DNA of 64,000 bases. Source: Kluyveromyces lactis. Its lineage: Eukaryota; Ascomycota; Saccharomycetes; Saccharomycetales; Saccharomycetaceae. Location of the stretch: contig NC_006038.1 of NCBI RefSeq assembly GCF_000002515.2, positions 62,001 to 126,000 of the forward strand, written 5' to 3'. The position numbers were made by a program, and so were the translations under genes. A model generated the notes under the pieces. It worked only from the letters and a program-made list of their open reading frames with translations, was not told the origin of the DNA and made no database searches. Positions 54,705 through 64,000 of this stretch are shown one piece after another. The number at the start of each line of letters is the position of its first letter. Position 1 is the first letter of the stretch.

Positions 54705-55771
54705 TTAGTTTCTTTTTCTGAATCTTCTGTCTCTAACAGCAGAAACAGAGGAAACGGATAATGGCAACTTCAAACCCAAAGAGTTGACCAATTCAGCGGT
54801 TTGAGTGTCAACGTTCAAGACGTCGTTAGAGTGAGACAAGTCCAAAGCAGAGACATCTGGAACGTATTGATCCTTTCTTTCTCTTTCTTCTTCTTGCAAC
54901 TTGAAGGAAATACCTCTAACTGGACCCTTTTGGATTCTCTTCATCAAATGGGTGGTGTAACCAGCAATCTTGTTTCTCAATCTCTTAGATTGGATGGTAG
55001 CGATTTCGTCACACAATCTCTTGTTGGTTTGGAAATCCATGGTCAACTTTGGATAGTACTTTTCAATCAAAGCCTTGGAGGCACGCTTGACGGTCTTGGT
55101 TCTAACTCTACCCTACTCAAATAATATCAACGAATCGATTTGATCTTGTTAGTAAAAGTGGCTTCATTTTATATTGCTTCTGCGAAAACTTCCATGGAAG
55201 ATAGACCTGAGAAAGAATTTGATCCTGTGAAGTTCATCATTTTGGGGGAAATAATTGGACATATGCGTTCGTTTCGTCAACTTTATTACATGTGAGAGAC
55301 CTTTAACGTTAGGGTGATGAACTCCATTAATACTGTGTTGGATATGATGTTGTGGTAGCTCATATACTAATCAATGCAGGCCGTTTGCTTTATTTTGTTC
55401 CATTTTACATCAGACGGAGTTTTGATCCTTACTGTGGGTCACAATACTGGAACATGGTCATACATCACTCCTGACATGCCATAATGTTCAACTGGTGATT
55501 GGTACTTCCCAAATTGTGCAACTTTTAATACCTTTCTCACTTTCTATAGTTTTGTCTTCTTCCTCATCATTCTATTATTCTACAGTGACCAGTGCCAACC
55601 CAAAGTCCAGGTTATCTATTCCTCCTATAATCTCTCTTAATGTAGATTTTGGTCATTAGTCTACGTCTCCCGATCAATCCAGCTCTGGAAAAACACTTCT
55701 TCTCATAATCTCTTATCTTTATGGTTCTTTTCGCTTCAATTTGTCAGTTATCATCATGCTTAACGTACCAT
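54705..55771 (-). CDS. RPS17: Ribosomal protein eS17 (Rps17), spliced
   Basis: 40S subunit protein. Exon 2 is 54705-55112 and encodes [20 protein letters not shown] through RFRKRN. With a one-codon first exon (ATG), the usual yeast structure, it gives 136 residues, the normal length. The intron ends TAG at 55113-55115, and TACTAAC lies at 55148-55154. I place exon 1 at 55769-55771, where ATG is followed by the 5' splice site GTACGT (intron of 656 bases). An ATG at 55480-55482 followed by GCATGT is the alternative (367 bases, GC-AG). The promoter words shared with RPS18 sit at matching distances only for 55771. It is the single copy of the RPS17A/B pair. Confidence 0.92.
55113..55768 (-). other. 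RPS17 intron (preferred model)
   Basis: 5' splice site GTACGT at 55768-55763, branch point TACTAAC at 55154-55148, 3' end TAG at 55115-55113. The branch and 3' site are firm; the 5' site is chosen over the GCATGT at 55479-55474 because of the promoter layout. Confidence 0.7.
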
Positions 55772-56222
55772 TTTGTATCGATTTAGTCCTTACGGTTGTT
55801 CCTTGTTTCAAATGCTAGAATAGTGTTAAACACGTACTGTCAACAATTGGTCTTGTAAATGTTACCGTAATCTTTAAAAGTTCATTATTACTAGACAGTA
55901 TGAAATTTCATGGTGCAAACGTTGAAACAAACAGACTAACCAGGATTCACTCACAACCGGGGAACGGAAACGAAGCACAATGCAAAGGGAATACTAAGCT
56001 GGACAGAGCTAGGCAGAAGGTGTCACTGGAGGACACAATGTTACCGAAGGAACAGCTGGTAAGAGAGTGCGTGGTAGCATCCAAAGTGGGCAGAGATGGG
56101 ACTCGGGAACGAAAGTGCGTCTCGTGTGGATGACAGCAAGCTAGACAGACATTCTGTCTTCCAGTACCAGTCCACACACCTTTCCCCTCCGTCCCAATTC
56201 TCTTACGAAGTGCCAAGTAGTA

Positions 56223-56238
56223 TTTCCTCTTTTGGTTT
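56223..56238. promoter_or_regulatory. Mcm1-like box for RPS17
   Basis: TTTCC-TCTTTT-GG has the Mcm1 CC-N6-GG spacing and one well-conserved half. It lies 65 bases from the Rap1-like site and about 455 from the RPS17 ATG. Confidence 0.45.
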
Positions 56239-56303
56239 TATCAAATTTTATGAAATTAGCGTTCTCGAATTTCAGGATTTTCAGATTTTTCATCCTTAAT
56301 AAG

Positions 56304-56316
56304 AATGTAAGGATGT
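56304..56316 (-). promoter_or_regulatory. Rap1-like site (HOMOL1/RPG type) for RPS17
   Basis: ACATCCTTACATT on the minus strand differs by one base from the RPG/HOMOL1 form ACATCCGTACAT. It lies about 533 bases from the RPS17 ATG and about 210 from ADA2. Confidence 0.6.
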
Positions 56317-56525
56317 AACAGTCCCGCATTCTGTTCTCCTGTTTACATGGAAAGTTCAATTATGATGTTCTAAAGAATCAACAAGTGATTTCAAGAGAGT
56401 TTAAAGAATAAGTCAAACTCATTGATATAAAAAGATAACTAACTTCGAGGACCCGCAAACTGTTATAGTGATTTAGCTTTACATCTGTTTGACTTTGAAC
56501 TGCTTCTCCTTGTTCAACCGTCACC

Positions 56526-57833
56526 ATGTCTAACAAGTTCCATTGTGATATTTGTTCTGCAGATTGTACAAACAGAGTCAGAATAACATGTGCGGTGTGT
56601 CCAGAGTATGATTTATGTGTGCCATGCTTCGCAAAAGGGTTATACAACGGTAAGCACCGGCCAAGCCATGACTATAAAGTGATTGAAACCAACTCATACC
56701 CGATTCTCTGTGAGGATTGGGGCGCTGATGAAGAGTTACTGTTGATAAAAGGAGCCCAGACACTGGGATTAGGTAACTGGCAAGATATTGCGGATCATAT
56801 CGGATCTAGAGATAAGGAAGAAGTTTATGATCATTATTTGAAGTTTTACTTGAACAGTGAACACTATCCTATTCCAGATATCACAAAAGACATTAATGAA
56901 CCGCAAGAACAATTTTTGGAGAAAAGAAAGAAACGCATGGAAAGATTTAGGGAAAGGCCTTTGGAACCTCCTAGGAAACCGATGGCATCACAACCGTCAT
57001 GCCATGAAGTGCAAGGGTTTATGCCAGGTAGATTGGAATTCGAAACGGAGTTCGAGAATGAGGCCGAAGGTCCGGTCAAAGATATGGTCTTCGACGCCGA
57101 TGATCAACCGTTAGATATTGAAGTGAAGTTGGCTATTCTTGACATCTACAACTCGAGATTGACGACTAGAGCAGAAAAGAAGCGTTTGTTGTTTGACAAT
57201 TGTCTGATGGAATACAGGAGACTACAAAGTCTCGATAAGAAGCGTTCAAAAGAAACCAAAGATTTGTACAACAAAATTAAGGCTTTCGCAAGAATCATGT
57301 CCCCGCTGGATTTTGAAGAATTCAGCAAAGACATATTGGAAGAACTTCGGTGTCGAACAAGAATTCATCAATTGCAAGAATGGAGGAGCAACGGTATCAC
57401 TACTTTGGAAGCTGGTCTTAAATATGAACGTGATAAACAAGCAAGAATTATGACATTGGAAAGATTTGGAAGTCAAGTGTACTCTTCTTCTTCATCTAGT
57501 AACACTGCCCGTTATAGAGCTACTTCGGCCCATAGATCGCAAGCTGATTATGCTCAAAATTATAACGAAGGAAGTGGACGTAAGAAACTAATGACTATCA
57601 GTGACATTCAGCATGGGGCAGATTTCCAATTATTATCAGCTGAGGAACAGCAGTTATGCATAACGTTGAAAATTTTGCCAAAGCCTTACATTGCCATCAA
57701 AGAGGTACTATTCAGAGAATTAATACGGACTGCAGGTCAACTCTCGAAGAAACAGTGTCGTGATTTATTGAATATCGAGGCAACGAAGGCCAACAGAATC
57801 TATGATTTCTTCGTTTCTCAGAATTGGGTTTAA
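56526..57833 (+). CDS. ADA2: SAGA/ADA coactivator subunit Ada2
   Basis: Adaptor that binds and stimulates the histone acetyltransferase Gcn5 in SAGA, SLIK and ADA complexes. The 435-residue product has a ZZ zinc finger at about 4-52 (CDIC, CAVC, CVPC and two histidines), a SANT domain at about 59-110 (EELLLIKGAQTLGLGNWQDIADHIG), the central ADA2 region, and a C-terminal SWIRM domain at about 350-435. Length matches S. cerevisiae (434). First ATG at 56526 with the conserved start MSNKFHCDIC. Confidence 0.98.
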   Translation: MSNKFHCDICSADCTNRVRITCAVCPEYDLCVPCFAKGLYNGKHRPSHDYKVIETNSYPILCEDWGADEELLLIKGAQTLGLGNWQDIADHIGSRDKEEVYDHYLKFYLNSEHYPIPDITKDINEPQEQFLEKRKKRMERFRERPLEPPRKPMASQPSCHEVQGFMPGRLEFETEFENEAEGPVKDMVFDADDQPLDIEVKLAILDIYNSRLTTRAEKKRLLFDNCLMEYRRLQSLDKKRSKETKDLYNKIKAFARIMSPLDFEEFSKDILEELRCRTRIHQLQEWRSNGITTLEAGLKYERDKQARIMTLERFGSQVYSSSSSSNTARYRATSAHRSQADYAQNYNEGSGRKKLMTISDIQHGADFQLLSAEEQQLCITLKILPKPYIAIKEVLFRELIRTAGQLSKKQCRDLLNIEATKANRIYDFFVSQNWV

Positions 57834-57926
57834 TTAGAGTTATAAAACTGTGGAAATATTGGCTCCACTGCTTACCTTACTACTTAATGTCAAATATGTA
57901 CATAAAAATGTGTATACAGTGTCTCA

Positions 57927-59291
57927 TTACAGTTTCTTGATAATAGCATTCAAAATAGCATACTTCGAATCAGATTTATCCATATTGGATAATAGATGTT
58001 GGGTCAAATAACCAGAATATAATGTAGTAAGTTGTTTGGCATTCGTCTCATCTAATTTGCTGATGTATGCAGAATACTTTTTGAAGGACAATTGGAGACT
58101 GTCGATGTTTAATTCGCCGGCAGGCATGAATTTGATATTTAATGTAACATCATGCAATAATAATTCCACATATTTTTCTGGCATACTTTTCTCAAGGGAA
58201 ATATTATAATGTTCGTCCTTTAGCCATTGCAATACGTGATTTATCAGATATTCTCTTTTTAAATCTTGAAATTCCGAAAATAAGTTGATATACTCGAGGC
58301 ATCTATCAAACAGGTAGGACATAACGTTTCTGCTGAGCTCTTCATCGACTTGCGAATTGGTAACGGCGTAGTATCCTTGATGTTTCTTGACAAAAGATGT
58401 GCCCAGATTCTTCATTGCGATATCGAATATAACCAATGCGACATCACCACGTAGTGCTGGATTAGTTTCTTCTGATCCAAGCATATTCATATCGGCTTCT
58501 GGTAACTCGTTTAGTTTATCTTTCATCTTGTCACCAGTACTTGGAAGTTGAATTCCGTCTTTGTCAAAGTATGCTTCGTCATCTGCAGTTTCTTCCAGAC
58601 CTGTTACATTACTGGAGTTTCTTCCTTCCTCTTGCTGTTGTAGCATATCTAGCTCTTGTTCCCTTTCGTTGATTAAATTCATCACTTTTCTTCTATTTAA
58701 CAATTTTGTCACGAAATTCAGTTCGAATTTAACGTACTCGTACCAGAGTTTAGAAGCATCTGGATTAAATCTAAGACCAGTTTGAAAAACATTTCTACAG
58801 CTCTTGAAGTTTGCGTGCAATTCGTATTCATATTTAGCACATGATATCCAAACGTCAACGTTTGTTGGATGTAATTTGAGCAATTGATTGTAGACGTTTT
58901 GAATCTTTTTATAAGAGGCATTTGTACCCTTTGATTTTAAATGATTCAAATATAAAGACCAAAATTTCAATTTTTTTGGGAACTTATTGCAGCCTCTTTG
59001 GAAAATATAGAGAATCCTCTGCTGTATGGTAAAATCCGAAATACTATTTGATTTGTTCGATTGCAAGATACGTTTAACACGTTTCATTCTTAATGCATCG
59101 ACATTCTTCTCGTATTCAATATATCTGATGTAATCACTTATACTTGAACCTCTCGAACTCAATCTGTGTTCAAAATCAGTCCTTTTCTTCATAATTTTGT
59201 TTACTTCATTCTTAGTGAATAACTTCTTCTGCACTAAGTCATCAACTTCTGGAATACATTGTTCCAAGTAATATCTTGTTCTGGATGACAT
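57927..59291 (-). CDS. UTP6: SSU processome subunit Utp6
   Basis: UtpB component of the small-subunit processome, needed for 18S rRNA processing in the nucleolus. The 454-residue product starts with the conserved U3 domain ([27 protein letters not shown]) and then has half-a-TPR (HAT) repeats with W/Y and acidic positions. Length is close to S. cerevisiae Utp6 (440). Convergent with ADA2 at 93 bases. A GATGAG array upstream is a good candidate PAC element, as expected for a ribosome-biogenesis gene. Confidence 0.96.
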
Positions 59292-59409
59292 CGCCTTACT
59301 CTGGGTAGTTTTATGTTAAGTATTGATTAAAGTGTAATCACGGAGACTCGTATCGCTCGCTTACTGACAAAGGAAACGACTACTGGCTTTGTTCATGCTA
59401 AATAATACT

Positions 59410-59427
59410 GAGATGAGATGAGATGAG
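59410..59427. promoter_or_regulatory. Tandem GATGAG array (PAC-like) upstream of UTP6
   Basis: Three overlapping GAGATGAG words with 5-base spacing, 120-135 bases upstream of the UTP6 ATG. PAC is GCGATGAG, so each copy lacks the C. The neighbour gene is of the regulon that PAC controls. Confidence 0.55.
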
Positions 59428-59697
59428 CCTTGAAGCTTTTGAATTTTTTTGGTTATATTGATTTCTTTTTCATATAATCAGTCAGAATAAAGTCCTCCAT
59501 TTAAATAACCATCGATGAATAACAAAAGGACAAGTACAATTGTTGTTCTGCTAGCGTAAATCGGATTTTTTTTTACTGCAAATTGAATCCGCTTACATAT
59601 GACATTCGGGACTACCATAAACTGCGACCCTTAATGTCGTTGTATGCTTTCATACAAGATGACAGTTTTGTTGATCGTTAATTCGGGCAATTTAACA

Positions 59698-59705
59698 TTA
59701 CCCGG
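59698..59705 (+). promoter_or_regulatory. Reb1 site
   Basis: TTACCCGG, a full match to the Reb1 core, in the divergent UTP6/YML6 promoter, 160 bases before YML6. Confidence 0.6.
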
Positions 59706-59863
59706 ATATTTTACATGGTAGACAAATTTTCGATAATCAAAAATCTGAATATGAAATAGGTTGAATACTAAAGATGATTGATTTGTTTGCGGTGATCAGA
59801 CATAGGAGTGTCCAATTGATCCCCTTTGTATCGAGACATTAAGTCAGTGTATCAGAATCAGCC

Positions 59864-60820
59864 ATGTTTTCCAAGAGACAAGGTTTGAATTTGTGCAAAA
59901 ACGTATGTCAAACCCATTTTCATCACTGTTGCAATGGTAAAGCGCGGGCTTTCCTCAAACTGCATGATGATATCCTTCCGCATTAAGCAGTTATATCACC
60001 TACTTTTAGAAGATCGATTTACTAACTATTGCTCGTAATTTTTTGTTACTCTTTTCCCTATTCTCTACAGGTCCGTTACGTTTCCAACAAACCCCTTCCT
60101 AATGCTAGTCTACCGCCAAAATATACCTTAGCAACGGTTCGTTCATTCCCATCATTAGAACCATTGACATTTGCACCAGTGCCAACCTCAGTATTTGATG
60201 CTCCATTGAGAAGAGACTTACTATGGCGTGCTGTTGTTTACGAAAATGACAGTAAACGTGTTGGGTCTTCTAACCCCCCAGGCAGAAGTGATGTTGGTTA
60301 TTCGAGAAGAAAGATTTTACCACAAAAGGGATCTGGTATGGCCAGAGCTGGTGACGCTAATTCACCAATAAGGCATAACGGTGGTAGAGCTCTAGCAAGA
60401 ACTGCACCAAATGATTATACCACAGCGCTCCCAAAGAAAGTGTACTCTTTAGCATTCAATAACGCACTAAGTCATCAATACAGAAACGGTAACGTCTTCG
60501 TCATCGGAAGTGGTGACGGAATCTCCGAAACAAGCCAGGCTGATCTAAATGAATTGGAAATTCTTCCCATCGGGGAGGGCTCAGAAGATGGCGATATCGT
60601 GTTCGAAAAATTCCTAAAGCACTATGAGCTACAGAACAAGAAGCTATTATTCGTTATTAACGAACCAAGGCCAGGATTATTTTCATTTACAGAAAGATTC
60701 CAAGATAAAGTTAACATCGTCCAAAAAGAATTTGTTGATGTCAACGATCTACTTAAGGCTCACAGAATCTTTATTGAATTGGAAGCTTTAGAATACCTGG
60801 CTGTTACTCACGTTGTTTGA
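59864..60820 (+). CDS. YML6: Mitochondrial ribosomal protein uL4m (Yml6), spliced
   Basis: Large-subunit mitoribosomal protein homologous to bacterial L4. Exon 1 (59864-59902) encodes [13 protein letters not shown]. The intron is 59903-60070, with GTATGT at the 5' end, TACTAAC at 60020-60026 and CTACAG at the 3' end. Exon 2 (60071-60820) continues in phase as [19 protein letters not shown]. The 262-residue product carries the uL4 core, [21 protein letters not shown] with the RHNGGRA loop. The basic N-terminus is a plausible presequence. S. cerevisiae YML025C (286 residues) also has an intron near its start. Confidence 0.95.
59903..60070 (+). other. YML6 intron
   Basis: Short intron of 168 bases with fully canonical signals: GTATGT, TACTAAC 44 bases before the 3' site, and a pyrimidine-rich stretch ending CTACAG. 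Phase 0. Confidence 0.95.
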
Positions 60821-61098
60821 TTATGGAACGAGATACTGATCATCAGACGGGAGTTAAAATAAAAGCTTCGAATAATAAACTCCACATTGCACCAACTCAT
60901 CCACAACTTGTATATATATGTATGTGTGTATATTAACGTCACAAATAAAATGAAAATAGCTACACGGCTGTTTATCTAAGTTAGCGACATCCGTATTTGT
61001 AAAGACAATTGACCAATGCTGTGGCCATCATCAAGCTGTAAAATCCAAATCGAGGACAAACAGACGCAACCATTTCGGACTGTTGTCGGAAGCCTTAT

Positions 61099-61110
61099 AC
61101 ACCCGTGCAT
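61099..61110 (+). promoter_or_regulatory. Rap1 site upstream of RPS18
   Basis: ACACCCGTGCAT matches the Rap1/RPG consensus ACACCCRYRCA and lies about 515-525 bases before the RPS18 ATG, in forward orientation, as in ribosomal-protein promoters. Confidence 0.75.
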
Positions 61111-61169
61111 TTTATTATTTTCAATGCGCCTATAACCGAATAATAGTTTAATTTTTCCTTTCCTTCAAG

Positions 61170-61185
61170 TTTCCTGATTAGGAAA
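61170..61185. promoter_or_regulatory. Mcm1 palindrome upstream of RPS18
   Basis: TTTCCTGATTAGGAAA is an almost perfect Mcm1 site (TTTCC-N6-GGAAA), 59 bases after the Rap1 site and about 440-450 before the ATG. Rap1 with Mcm1 at ribosomal-protein genes has been described in Kluyveromyces. Confidence 0.75.
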
Positions 61186-61622
61186 CCCATCCAACGTTTT
61201 TCAGACTTTGGGCTGAGTTTTCTCCGTGCCTAAGGAAAGACAGGGCATTAGGTGTGCCGACGCCTCGGTTCTTTCCAGTTTCTCCTCCCCGACAGAATTT
61301 CCATCCCCCTGATTCTGCTTCTCCTACCGACACCTTCTGCTCCTAGGCTGGGAACATGCACCACTAGACCGATCTTGCTCAGTGACAGAGTATGCTGGGC
61401 CTCTGTCCAGTTCTGGTTTGTGCGGTTGTGAGACAATCGTTCTATAGTGGTTTTACCGAATGGCAAGTTTGTATGGAGGGAAACCTTTGAACCTTTGCAA
61501 AATCATAGTGTTCAATTAGTGAAAAGCTACTTAACAATGATATATTAGTGTTATTATATTTAAATAACGGATACTTTATTATTAGGTAGTCGTTTTCGAA
61601 ACAGAACGAGTAAGAAGCAAAG

Positions 61623-62593
61623 ATGTCTCTAGTTGTTCAAGAACAAGGTTCCTTCCAACACATTTTGCGGTATGTTTTAAGATGAGAAACGTTTTAAGAG
61701 GATTACAACGAGGAAATTGAAATGAGATATGTTCAAGGGCAATGAATACGAGTATTATCAAGACAACACTACCGTGGTTATAAAGAGTTCCGAGGAGATG
61801 AAAGGTATTAGACAGCTTTATGAAAACATGCATTGCGCGTTACATTCGGTATATCATTTAGTGATGATGTTATACTATTAAAGTGAAGAAAATGAGAAGG
61901 AATACCACCAGATAGATGGTCCCACAATTTTTCCAAAGATCAAATCGAATTGAAAAGCTTACGCCCGTTAGTAGACAATATGCAGAATGTTGAACTCAAA
62001 AATGGATCTCCTTTCTGACATTTTACGTTAGGTCATCCAAAGTTTTATGTTGATTTAGGCATCGAAAACAATCAAAGTACCAAACTGCATAATCGAAGCA
62101 AGGAGAAGCATTTTGTGTTTATGGGTTTTCCTCCGTTGTCGCCCTCAGATTGACTATCATCAAATTTTACTAACATTTTTATTCCCATTATTTTTACAGT
62201 TTGTTGAACACCAACGTTGATGGTAACATCAATGTTGTCTACGCTTTGACTACCATCAGAGGTGTCGGTCGTAGATACGCCAACTTGGTTTGTAAGAAGG
62301 CTGATGTTGATTTACACAAGAGAGCTGGTGAATTGACCCAAGAAGAATTGGAAAGAATTGTCCAAATCATGCAAAACCCAACTCACTACAAGATCCCAGC
62401 TTGGTTCTTGAACAGACAAAAGGATGTCAATGATGGTAAGGACTACCACTCTTTGGCTAACAACTTGGAATCCAAGTTGAGAGATGACTTGGAAAGATTA
62501 AAGAAGATCAGATCTCACCGTGGTATCAGACACTTCTGGGGTTTGCGTGTCAGAGGTCAACATACCAAGACCACTGGTAGAAGAAGAGCTTAA
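61623..62593 (+). CDS. RPS18: Ribosomal protein uS13 (Rps18), spliced
   Basis: 40S head protein of the B1 intersubunit bridge. Exon 1 is 61623-61669 ([15 protein letters not shown] plus two bases of an Arg codon). The intron is 61670-62199, with GTATGT, TACTAAC at 62168-62174 and a TTTTTACAG end. Exon 2 (62200-62593) runs to [12 protein letters not shown]. The 146-residue product equals S. cerevisiae Rps18 in length and differs at few positions. Codon use is strongly biased, as expected. Single copy of the RPS18A/B pair, next to YML6 and YOX1/YHP1. Confidence 0.98.
61670..62199 (+). other. RPS18 intron
   Basis: Intron of 530 bases with canonical GTATGT, TACTAAC and CAG. It contains a GTGATGA word at 61861 and CTGA at 62015, but no terminal stem that would make a box C/D snoRNA convincing. 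Confidence 0.95.
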
Positions 62594-63026
62594 ACAAGAG
62601 AATGAGTTCTCTATTTTTAAAATGGTTGGTTTCTACTTTGGAATCTTGCAACCTTTCAAGGCACAAATGTTTTAAATTAGTGATACCAACTTTAATTTAG
62701 AATTTTTTTCATTATATTATCTCTTGTATAACTATCAAAACACTATACGTTCCGTATTAATTACATTATCTCAAGACTTATTATAATATGTCTTACAGCT
62801 GCTTGCTTGTGCAAAGTGATGATTGAATCATCCTGTCCATTTTTCTAGGATATCTTGAAATACAGGTTATGGCTTTTATAGTCCGAGCTAATGTTAAGCG
62901 GAGAGTAAGAATATATAGATATATCTATATACAGGTGGATGTCTTTCCTGTACGCAGGATAGTGTTACAATTGTCTTTGTATCGGTCTGCCGAGCGACCA
63001 TGCTAAGGTTTGTCAGTTTGTCATCA
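62594..63026. other. RPS18-YOX1/YHP1 convergent spacer
   Basis: About 430 bases of AT-rich 3' flank. It includes a perfect 20-bp palindrome at 62912-62931 made of TATATAGATA and its complement, which may be part of a 3' processing signal. No gene. Confidence 0.6.
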
Positions 63027-64000
63027 TTATGTCGTATTGATGTTCAATTCTTTTAATATGCCTCTGTTGGAACTGAAATTGAGCTTTCCAGCCGTATTCA
63101 TATTTTCACTCATTTTGACATTCTCGTCTGTTACTTCCTTGACGGGTGTAGTAACAAAATCTTTGATATTTGTACCATTTATCAGCTTGTTCACTCTGTT
63201 ATTCGGGCTGGTATAGACCCTTGAGAGTTCATTGTCTTGCTTCAACCTAAAAGTGAGTACTTTACCCTTTTCTGAGGGGGAAGTAATTTTTTCAGGTGGA
63301 CTGGATATAGTGTATCTTGGGATATCGAGCTTCAATTTCTTTTGGAACTTCAATTCATCATTCATTATGACTAATGAACCGTTATCATTGGAACTGTTGC
63401 GTTTGGTAGTGGATACGGTAGCAATATTCGAGGTTGTGATTTCAATGAGGGGATGGTTTTGTTGAAGAGAATCGTCTGTCTGCATACCATCTGCGTTAGA
63501 TATAGACTCAGTGGGGCTACTAATTTGATCTCTCAAATCTGGTATTTTAGCCGTGTCATTTAATCCAATGTCGTTTGAATCATCTAATGGTGAGTTTATT
63601 TGTTTTGAATCCACCTTGAACTTCTTTCTGAAGTTTTGTCTTCTATTTTGGAACCAAACTTGGACTGCCTTTTCGCTCATGTTACATATTATTGATAGTT
63701 CCGATCTTCTCTCCTTTGAGGGAGCAGGGTTCACTTCGAATTCCTTTTTTAAGATGTCTGATTCATTTTTCGAAGTTCTTCTTCTCTTTCTTCTAGCCAG
63801 TTGTGCGTTATCGATTGAAGGCTCATTAGAGGGAAACGTTTCCTGAGAGTGTGTGATGAATGCAAACGATTTAGCTTTGTTGGTTCTTTTCTTAGCACTA
63901 CTGTTTTTCGAATCAGAATCATCTAGCGATTCTGGATCCGTCAGAACAAGGTTGTTACCAGCGCTGTTGCTTCTTTTAGTTACCTTTGGTCTCTTTGACG
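63027..64000 (-). CDS. YOX1: Homeobox repressor Yox1/Yhp1 (5' end outside window)
   Basis: Homeodomain protein which in S. cerevisiae works with Mcm1 to repress M/G1 (ECB) genes. The frame is open to the right edge without an ATG, so the N-terminus lies beyond 64000; 323 residues are visible. It shows [20 protein letters not shown], shared with Yox1, then a basic ARRKRRRTS arm and the homeodomain (about 63640-63815) with the recognition helix [13 protein letters not shown]. The C-terminal 200 residues are serine/asparagine-rich. It is the single ancestor-like copy of YOX1 (YML027W) and YHP1 (YDR451C). Confidence 0.93.

What the first reader, a model, noticed from the sequence alone, without database searches (positions are those of the whole stretch)
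55772..61622. RPS17 and RPS18 promoters share a collinear set of words at matching distances
Reading each region toward its gene, both have in the same order and orientation: a Rap1-like site (about -530 and -520 from the ATG), an Mcm1-type CC-N6-GG box (about -455 and -445), AGGTGTG-NN-GAC (56170-56181 and 61250-61261), GACAGAAT, GACACCTTCTGC (56013-56024 and 61329-61340, exact 12-mer), CTCTGTCCAG (55999-56008 and 61401-61410, exact 10-mer) and CGGTTGTGAG (55950-55959 and 61423-61432, exact 10-mer, about -180 and -190). For two stretches of about 550 bases, one chance 12-mer match is expected roughly 0.02 times, and here there are also collinear 10-mers. Rap1-Mcm1 pairing is known at Kluyveromyces ribosomal-protein genes. 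The downstream words suggest further shared factors or a copied promoter.
Basis: partly seen in the sequence, partly recalled or inferred. Interest (0 to 1): 0.75.

Follow-up and report, generated by a model that had tools for sequence, protein, structure and literature searches.

The report
Ordinary yeast ribosomal-protein promoter elements
The short words shared by these two yeast ribosomal-protein gene promoters are real, but most of the likeness fits a regulatory layout that many ribosomal-protein genes of this yeast share, with no sign of a copied promoter.

Summary
All words exist as stated, in one order, above a shuffle null (three shared 10-mers P=0.004, chain P=0.001). The genome is Kluyveromyces lactis (RPS18 best matches KLLA0B01562p). 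The Rap1-Mcm1 part is published and tested for both genes (Sorrells 2018). The three long downstream words are not a ribosomal-protein code: no genome-wide enrichment (67 vs 65 control, 11 vs 8, 11 vs 11) and, but for one near-match, absent from 13 other such promoters. They lie in or beside the G+C-rich stretch these promoters share, where a comparison of 17 promoters finds CTCTGCCTAG, the IFHL/Hmo1 element. The 12-mer ends inside an IFHL core in RPS17 and abuts an IFHL-like site in RPS18. Neither promoter has a BLAST copy. Against this reading: among 136 ribosomal-protein promoter pairs this one is 4th overall, but 1st once Rap1/Mcm1 sites alone are masked, so some pair-specific sharing is not excluded. 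Conservation in relatives could not be tested. Verdict: mostly known architecture plus chance.

The parts
56304..56316 (-). RPS17 Rap1 site ACATCCTTACATT (-545 from ATG)
   Evidence: pattern match with 1 mismatch; Rap1-Mcm1 operator of K. lactis RPS17 tested in reporters (PMC6173580, passages)
56226..56235 (-). RPS17 Mcm1 CC-N6-GG box CCAAAAGAGG, 81 bp from the Rap1 site start to start
   Evidence: paper states an endogenous spacing of 80 bp for RPS17; weak match, below the control 95th percentile
56170..56181 (-). AGGTGTGTGGAC word, RPS17 (-410)
   Evidence: 2-mismatch copies in 5 of 13 other promoters
56151..56158 (-). GACAGAAT word, RPS17 (-387)
   Evidence: 7 copies in the window
56013..56024 (-). 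12-mer GACACCTTCTGC, RPS17 (-253)
   Evidence: exact; only two exact copies in the genome, 67 vs 65 control at up to 1 mismatch
56007..56019 (-). IFHL element CTTCTGCCTAGCT in the RPS17 promoter (-248); overlaps the last 7 bases of the 12-mer
   Evidence: matrix trained without RPS17/RPS18, p=8e-6 per position, the floor of the control set; core equals the IFHL site of PMC11430298
55999..56008 (-). CTCTGTCCAG word, RPS17 (-237), weak IFHL look-alike
   Evidence: p=4.5e-4; 11 genome copies vs 8 control
55950..55959 (-). CGGTTGTGAG word, RPS17 (-188), unexplained, probably chance
   Evidence: 11 genome copies vs 11 control
54705..55771 (-). RPS17 gene: 3-nt exon 1 (55769-55771), intron, exon 2
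   Evidence: PF00833 2.1e-54; donor GTACGT and branch TACTAAC
61099..61111 (+). RPS18 Rap1 site ACACCCGTGCATT (-524)
   Evidence: pattern match with 1 mismatch
61173..61182 (+). RPS18 Mcm1 box CCTGATTAGG, 74 bp from Rap1 start to start
   Evidence: scrambling the Mcm1 site lowers expression of the K. lactis RPS18 reporter (PMC6173580)
61250..61261 (+). AGGTGTGCCGAC word, RPS18 (-373)
61291..61298 (+). GACAGAAT word, RPS18 (-332)
61329..61340 (+). 12-mer GACACCTTCTGC, RPS18 (-294)
61341..61353 (-). IFHL-like element TCCCAGCCTAGGA in the RPS18 promoter, starting right after the 12-mer
   Evidence: matrix trained without RPS17/RPS18, p=2.5e-5; score 13.9, control maximum 14.3
61401..61410 (+). 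CTCTGTCCAG word, RPS18 (-222)
61423..61432 (+). CGGTTGTGAG word, RPS18 (-200)
61623..62593 (+). RPS18 gene: exon 1, intron, exon 2 from about 62200
   Evidence: best PDB match KLLA0B01562p / uS13; PF00416

Best explanation
RPS17 and RPS18 carry two ordinary examples of the K. lactis ribosomal-protein promoter. Rap1 acts cooperatively with Mcm1 bound 50-80 bp downstream (shown in print). Some 120-375 bp downstream of Rap1 lies a G+C-rich stretch with IFHL elements, where by analogy with S. cerevisiae Hmo1 (perhaps with Fhl1-Ifh1) binds and helps place the transcription machinery before the AT-rich start region (inferred for K. lactis). The exact downstream words are mostly by-products of this shared vocabulary: the 12-mer GACACCTTCTGC ends inside an IFHL core in RPS17 and abuts an IFHL-like site in RPS18, and CTCTGTCCAG is a degenerate look-alike. 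The remaining letters, CGGTTGTGAG and AGGTGTG..GAC are taken as chance matches between sequences of like composition.
For: Published reporter tests of both genes' sites and Mcm1 bound at 70 of 101 K. lactis cytosolic ribosomal genes. De novo 8-mers CTGCCTAG and TCTGCCTA each in 7 of 17 promoters (RPS17 being one of the seven) versus 0 in 62 kb of control intergenic DNA. The IFHL site used in HMO1 binding work is TCTAGGCAGAG, whose reverse complement CTCTGCCTAGA holds the de novo consensus. A matrix trained without RPS17/RPS18 finds sites at p=8e-6 and 2.5e-5 at or next to the 12-mer. G+C is 0.45-0.48 at -450 to -200 in the 17 promoters; all the downstream words lie there except CGGTTGTGAG (-188, -200), at its edge. 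7 of 40 genomic TCTGCCTAG sites lie within 500 bp of one of the 100 listed Rap1 matches, 0.37 expected. Sense-strand sharing among ribosomal-protein pairs averages 6.1 against 4.1 in control pairs. An HMO1-like HMG-box frame exists in the genome.
Against: With only Rap1 and Mcm1 sites masked the pair is 1st of 136 (19; next 16), and joint 1st with IFHL cores masked too (15), so IFHL does not account for all the sharing. My first, looser mask (2nd and 6th) had blanked part of CTCTGTCCAG in RPS18. CGGTTGTGAG has no explanation beyond chance. TCTGCCTAG as a whole-genome count is not enriched (40 vs 41 control). The RPS18 IFHL-like site is weaker than the best control stretch and on the other strand. 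No Hmo1, Fhl1 or Ifh1 occupancy data for K. lactis were seen; Fhl1 sites are reported reduced in Kluyveromyces, and GACGC is not enriched here.
Confidence: 0.68

Rival explanations
1. The downstream words are separate binding sites of further factors that act on RPS17, RPS18 and perhaps a few others, giving these two linked genes a joint control.
For: Exact 12-mer and two 10-mers in the same order; pair is 1st of 136 ribosomal-protein pairs with Rap1 and Mcm1 masked and joint 1st with IFHL also masked; the 12-mer has only these two exact copies in the genome.
Against: No enrichment of any of the three words over reversed-word controls; nearly absent from 13 other ribosomal-protein promoters; two of the three fall on IFHL or IFHL-like sequence; spacing between words differs by up to 56 bp; some pair must be first, and the pair came to notice because of its likeness.
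Confidence: 0.18
2. One promoter is a copy of part of the other (duplication or gene conversion within the block), and the words are what is left.
For: The genes are 5.9 kb apart and the words are collinear.
Against: No BLAST match between the two promoters or to anything else in the genome at E<=0.001; unrelated pairs such as RPS23/RPS18 score 20 against 19 unmasked.
Confidence: 0.03
3. All downstream words are plain chance, with no link to IFHL.
For: A single shared 10-mer has P=0.28, and CGGTTGTGAG and CTCTGTCCAG are at control frequency.
Against: Three 10-mers together P=0.004; sense-strand sharing among ribosomal-protein promoters exceeds antisense and control (means 6.1, 4.3, 4.1); a perfect IFHL core overlaps the 12-mer in RPS17.
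Confidence: 0.11

Closest known systems
Kluyveromyces lactis Rap1-Mcm1 ribosomal-protein promoter (Tuch 2008; Sorrells 2018)
   Same: Same species, same two genes among those tested, Rap1 then Mcm1 toward the gene at 81 and 74 bp start to start
   Different: Nothing in the upstream part; the passages read do not describe the downstream words
IFHL motif of Saccharomyces cerevisiae ribosomal-protein promoters (Hmo1/Fhl1-Ifh1)
   Same: Same core CTCTGCCTAG / CTAGGCAGAG, G+C-rich surroundings between the activator sites and the start
   Different: In S. cerevisiae preferentially within 50 bp downstream of Rap1 (PMC2585575); here 123-374 bp in 9 promoters, with an Mcm1 box between in 7 of the 9 (RPS17's box counted on the paper's word)
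Fhl1 motif YKYGCGTC (PMC4579351)
   Same: GACGC occurs once in each promoter (RPS17 -350, RPS18 -364)
   Different: Present in only 3 of 17 promoters and not enriched (ratio 0.7); its order relative to GACAGAAT differs between the two genes

Membership tests
K. lactis Rap1-Mcm1 ribosomal-protein promoter | Rap1 site facing the gene | tested here: met
   56304-56316(-) and 61099-61111(+), 1 mismatch each to ACAYCCRTACATT. In one search's score neither exceeds the 95th percentile of a control set that is itself enriched for Rap1-like sites
K. lactis Rap1-Mcm1 ribosomal-protein promoter | Mcm1 box downstream at 52-78 bp (spacing of most sites, PMC6173580) | tested here: met
   74 bp for RPS18; 81 bp for RPS17, just outside the range, but the paper itself uses RPS17 with an endogenous spacing of 80 bp. 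RPS17's box is a weak match, as the paper says
K. lactis Rap1-Mcm1 ribosomal-protein promoter | Mcm1 site contributes to expression | not testable with these tools
   reported for RPS18 and for the RPS17 operator in PMC6173580
IFHL element | core CTCTGCCTAG in RPS17 | tested here: met
   9 bases TCTGCCTAG exact (C2:118009-118017); p=8e-6 by a matrix trained without it
IFHL element | core in RPS18 | tested here: inconclusive
   CCCAGCCTAG, opposite strand, p=2.5e-5, score 13.9 against a maximum of 14.3 in 39 control stretches
IFHL element | enriched in ribosomal-protein promoters of this genome | tested here: met
   7 of 17 promoters, RPS17 included, vs 0 in 62 kb control
IFHL element | bound by Hmo1 in vivo | not testable with these tools
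   no K. lactis ChIP data held; HMO1-like frame present
copied promoter | alignable DNA between and around the words | tested here: not met
   no BLAST match at E<=0.001 other than self
   0 of 13 others for GACACCTTCTGC (up to 2 mismatches) and CGGTTGTGAG (up to 1), 1 of 13 for CTCTGTCCAG (1 mismatch, antisense, RPL18); GACAGAAT exact in 1 of 13 (RPS10); AGGTGTG..GAC with 2 mismatches in 5 of 13
   The genome search says this genome has no relatives held; I looked in no other collection for yeast DNA

The most novel reading that the evidence does not exclude
In K. lactis the gain of Mcm1 beside Rap1 went together with a stretched layout: a collinear Rap1 - Mcm1 - IFHL order in which the Hmo1-type element lies 120-375 bp from Rap1 instead of preferentially within 50 bp as in S. 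cerevisiae, and in which the exact core TCTGCCTAG tends to read toward the gene. RPS17 and RPS18 are two examples.
Probability: 0.3. Interest if true: 0.4.

Novelty: already known. Interest (0 to 1): 0.2.

Why it matters
It tones down a candidate 'new shared code' and ties the striking 12-mer to a known kind of element. What remains usable is a small prediction: in K. lactis the Hmo1-type element sits far downstream of Rap1-Mcm1, which a ChIP experiment can check and which bears on how ribosomal-protein control was rewired.

Tried and rejected
Copied promoter: rejected by whole-genome BLAST of both promoters. Words as a genome-wide regulon: rejected by reversed-word controls. 28 of the 65 one-mismatch copies of the 12-mer were fetched with about 1.5 kb on each side; none has a ribosomal-protein gene there (a 22%-identity hit to ASC1 in L007 was not counted). 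Fhl1 core GACGC and AAAATTTT: not enriched. Genome-wide count of TCTGCCTAG: not enriched (40 vs 41); of 18 further sites fetched, 2 are by ribosomal-protein genes (RPL17, RPL30) and 7 lie under open frames of 250 codons or more. A loose mask for Rap1/Mcm1/IFHL gave ranks 2 (tied) and 6 for the pair but blanked part of the words; the tighter mask gives 1 and joint 1. On finding this I raised the pair-specific rival from 0.10 to 0.18 and lowered the best explanation from 0.80 to 0.68.

Limits of the sample: the promoters were found through a Rap1 pattern, so Rap1 presence is built in. I used 15 promoters and 17, out of roughly 80 ribosomal-protein genes (recalled number). Dropped: RPS14 (upstream cut off), RPS24, a P1-type gene (L081), and later RPL17 and RPL30. 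The RPL20 start codon was not found, so its promoter is placed approximately; it was left out. RPS22 and RPL39 share one intergenic region, so one IFHL site counts for both. The count of promoters above the control 95th percentile (12 of 17) is partly circular, since all but RPS17 and RPS18 of the twelve gave training sites. Control intergenic DNA comes from the window and from fetched non-ribosomal loci, picked by Rap1-like or 12-mer-like words, so it is not a random sample. Searches cut the RPS17 promoter one base short of the ATG, which shifts offsets by 1.
Full report
What was given.

Check of the observation. All words are at the stated places and in the stated order. The RPS17 start codon is 55771-55769 on the minus strand, with an intron directly after the ATG, and the RPS18 start codon is 61623. 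Against 2000 block-wise dinucleotide shuffles of the last 550 bases, a shared 12-mer is expected 0.021 times, at least three shared 10-mers have P=0.004, and a collinear chain as good as this has P=0.001; one shared 10-mer has P=0.28. The spacing is loose: from the 12-mer to CTCTGTCCAG is 16 bases in RPS17 and 72 in RPS18 (offsets).

Where it comes from. The genome has 10,729,447 bases in 7 contigs, and the best match of the RPS18 protein in the PDB is KLLA0B01562p, uS13 (a Kluyveromyces lactis name by recall). Pfam confirms the block as S17, an Ada2-type ZZ-Myb-SWIRM protein, U3-associated protein 6, an L4-family protein (YML6 by recall), S18 and part of a homeodomain, the last below Pfam's cut-off.

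The upstream half is known. In PMC6173580 (eLife 2018, passages read) the K. lactis RPS18 upstream region drove a reporter and scrambling its Mcm1 site lowered expression (p=0.017). The Rap1-Mcm1 operator of K. lactis RPS17 (weaker sites, 80 bp apart) showed dependence on spacing, and Rap1 and Mcm1 activate cooperatively. PMC2253631 (PLoS Biology 2008, passages read) reports Mcm1 bound at 70 of 101 K. lactis cytosolic ribosomal genes. The sites in the window fit: Rap1 56304-56316 and Mcm1 56226-56235 for RPS17, Rap1 61099-61111 and Mcm1 61173-61182 for RPS18, 81 and 74 bp start to start. By the simple scores the Rap1 sites of both genes and the Mcm1 box of RPS17 do not exceed the 95th percentile of the control stretches, which were partly chosen for Rap1-like sites.

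The words are not a regulon code. In the whole genome GACACCTTCTGC has two exact copies, these two; with up to one mismatch 67 copies against 65 for the reversed word. CTCTGTCCAG has 11 against 8, CGGTTGTGAG 11 against 11. Apart from the two promoters themselves none of these copies lies within 500 bp of the 100 listed (of 104) Rap1 matches. In 800 bp upstream of 13 other ribosomal-protein genes there is no GACACCTTCTGC with up to 2 mismatches, no CGGTTGTGAG with up to 1, and one CTCTGTCCAG with 1 mismatch, antisense, in RPL18. Of the two lesser words, GACAGAAT is also in RPS10, and AGGTGTG..GAC has 2-mismatch copies in 5 of the 13.

Ribosomal-protein promoters share vocabulary. A Rap1 pattern search gave 104 matches against 38 control. 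From 40 loci fetched around such matches, 14 smaller pieces and the window, 17 promoters were used. Chain scores on the sense strand average 6.1 among 136 ribosomal-protein pairs, 4.3 with one partner reversed, and 4.1 among 990 control pairs, of which none reaches 17. RPS17/RPS18 scores 19 and is 4th; RPS21/RPL35 (23), RPS23/RPS18 (20) and RPL19/RPL20 (20, RPL20 placed approximately) are above it.

My first mask for Rap1, Mcm1 and IFHL was loose and also blanked part of CTCTGTCCAG in RPS18; it put the pair 2nd (tied) and 6th. A tighter mask that removes only good Rap1 and Mcm1 sites puts it 1st of 136 (19; next 16, 15, 14), and with IFHL cores also masked joint 1st with RPS23/RPS18 (15 each, next 14). 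So outside the known sites this pair is the most alike of those examined, with a continuous run of other pairs behind it. Being first of 136 is about 0.007 for a pair named beforehand; this pair was noticed because of its likeness, so the figure is too strict. I have moved the odds accordingly.

The main shared element is IFHL. The most enriched 8-mers in the 17 promoters are CTGCCTAG and TCTGCCTA, each in 7 of 17 (RPS17 included) and absent from 62 kb of control intergenic DNA. The IFHL site used in HMO1 binding work is TCTAGGCAGAG (PMC11430298, passages read), whose reverse complement holds this consensus; other papers give the IFHL core as CTAGGCGG or GGCNG and tie it to Hmo1 (PMC2834713; PMC4579351; passages read). 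A matrix trained on promoters other than RPS17 and RPS18 finds CTTCTGCCTAGCT at 56007-56019 in RPS17 (p=8e-6, no control position as high), overlapping the last seven bases of the 12-mer, and TCCCAGCCTAGGA on the minus strand at 61341-61353 in RPS18 (p=2.5e-5), beginning at the base after the 12-mer. CTCTGTCCAG scores as a weak look-alike in both (p about 5e-4). Seven of 40 genomic TCTGCCTAG sites are within 500 bp of a listed Rap1 match where 0.37 are expected; six of the seven are in promoters of the set, the seventh, at C5:1818244, was not examined. Among 18 further sites fetched, two are by RPL17 and RPL30. The whole-genome count of TCTGCCTAG, 40 against 41, is not enriched, so the signal is one of location, not number.

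Composition. In the 17 promoters G+C is 0.45-0.48 between -450 and -200 and 0.26-0.39 nearer the gene, with C+T on the sense strand at 0.54-0.61 between -400 and -200. The downstream words lie in this stretch, CGGTTGTGAG (-188 and -200) at its edge. A G+C-rich zone under Hmo1 is described for S. cerevisiae (PMC4579351).

Mechanism. Shown in print: Mcm1 binding and the joint action of Rap1 and Mcm1 sites. Inferred: Hmo1, perhaps with Fhl1-Ifh1, occupies the G+C-rich stretch with its IFHL elements and helps set the start region. An HMO1-like frame with an HMG box is in the genome (L104; likeness to S. cerevisiae HMO1 judged from recall). Residual letters, CGGTTGTGAG and AGGTGTG..GAC are taken as chance.

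A possible new point. Nine promoters have an IFHL-type best site downstream of their Rap1 site, at 123-374 bp (RPS1, RPS23, RPL19, RPL31, RPS18, RPL39, RPL20, RPS17, RPL33). An Mcm1 box above the control 95th percentile lies between the two in six of the nine, RPS17's published box makes seven; RPL31's is weak and RPL20's best match is elsewhere. RPL12 has its Rap1 match reversed and farther upstream, RPS22 shares its site with RPL39, and six promoters (RPS21, RPL18, RPS10, RPL35, RPS2, RPS26) have no IFHL site above the threshold. In S. cerevisiae IFHL lies preferentially within 50 bp downstream of Rap1 (PMC2585575, passages read). The six exact TCTGCCTAG cores, RPL12's among them, all read toward the gene, apart from the RPS22 entry, which is the RPL39 site of the shared region; the shorter cores are less clear (CTGCCTA 8 sense and 3 antisense, GCCTAG 13 and 6), and of the nine best sites six read toward the gene and three away. 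Searches for Hmo1 with Kluyveromyces lactis (5 papers) and IFHL with Kluyveromyces (2 papers) were seen as listings; of these I read only passages of PMC6173580, and its supplements could not be read here. So I do not claim that the layout is unpublished.

Verdict. The test in relatives remains undone.

Noticed in passing
54705-63680: RPS17, ADA2, UTP6, YML6, RPS18 and a homeobox gene lie in one block; by recall S. cerevisiae has these split over two duplicated blocks (YDR447C-451C and YML024W-027W), so this is the unduplicated order.
   Followed up: partly
56304-56316 and 56526: RPS17 and ADA2 share a divergent intergenic region of about 750 bp; the Rap1 site is only about 210 bp from the ADA2 start, so ADA2 could be under the same activator.
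   Followed up: no
55901-55912 (RPS17 -141) and L061 (RPS22 -144): RPS17 and RPS22 share the 12-mer CATGAAATTTCA at nearly the same distance from the ATG; its palindrome TGAAATTTCA occurs once in 62 kb of control.
   Followed up: partly
RPL18, RPL19, RPL20, RPL39/RPS22, RPS26 promoters: Hexamer GGCTCC/GGAGCC in 6 of 17 ribosomal-protein promoters (one site shared by RPS22 and RPL39) against 1 in 62 kb control; not compared with known factor sites.
   Followed up: no
L087/L088 (G000:C1:576354 and 576603): Two TCTGCCTAG sites in opposite orientation 249 bp apart beside RPL17; the gene on the other side was not identified.
   Followed up: no
window and loci L032-L067: Rap1-to-IFHL distance of 123-374 bp in nine promoters, against preferentially within 50 bp in S. 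cerevisiae.
   Followed up: partly
RPS23 (L067) and RPS18 promoters: This pair scores as high as RPS17/RPS18 once Rap1, Mcm1 and IFHL cores are masked (15 each), sharing TTCTGCTTCTC, AGTGTTATTA and TAGTGGTTT.
   Followed up: no
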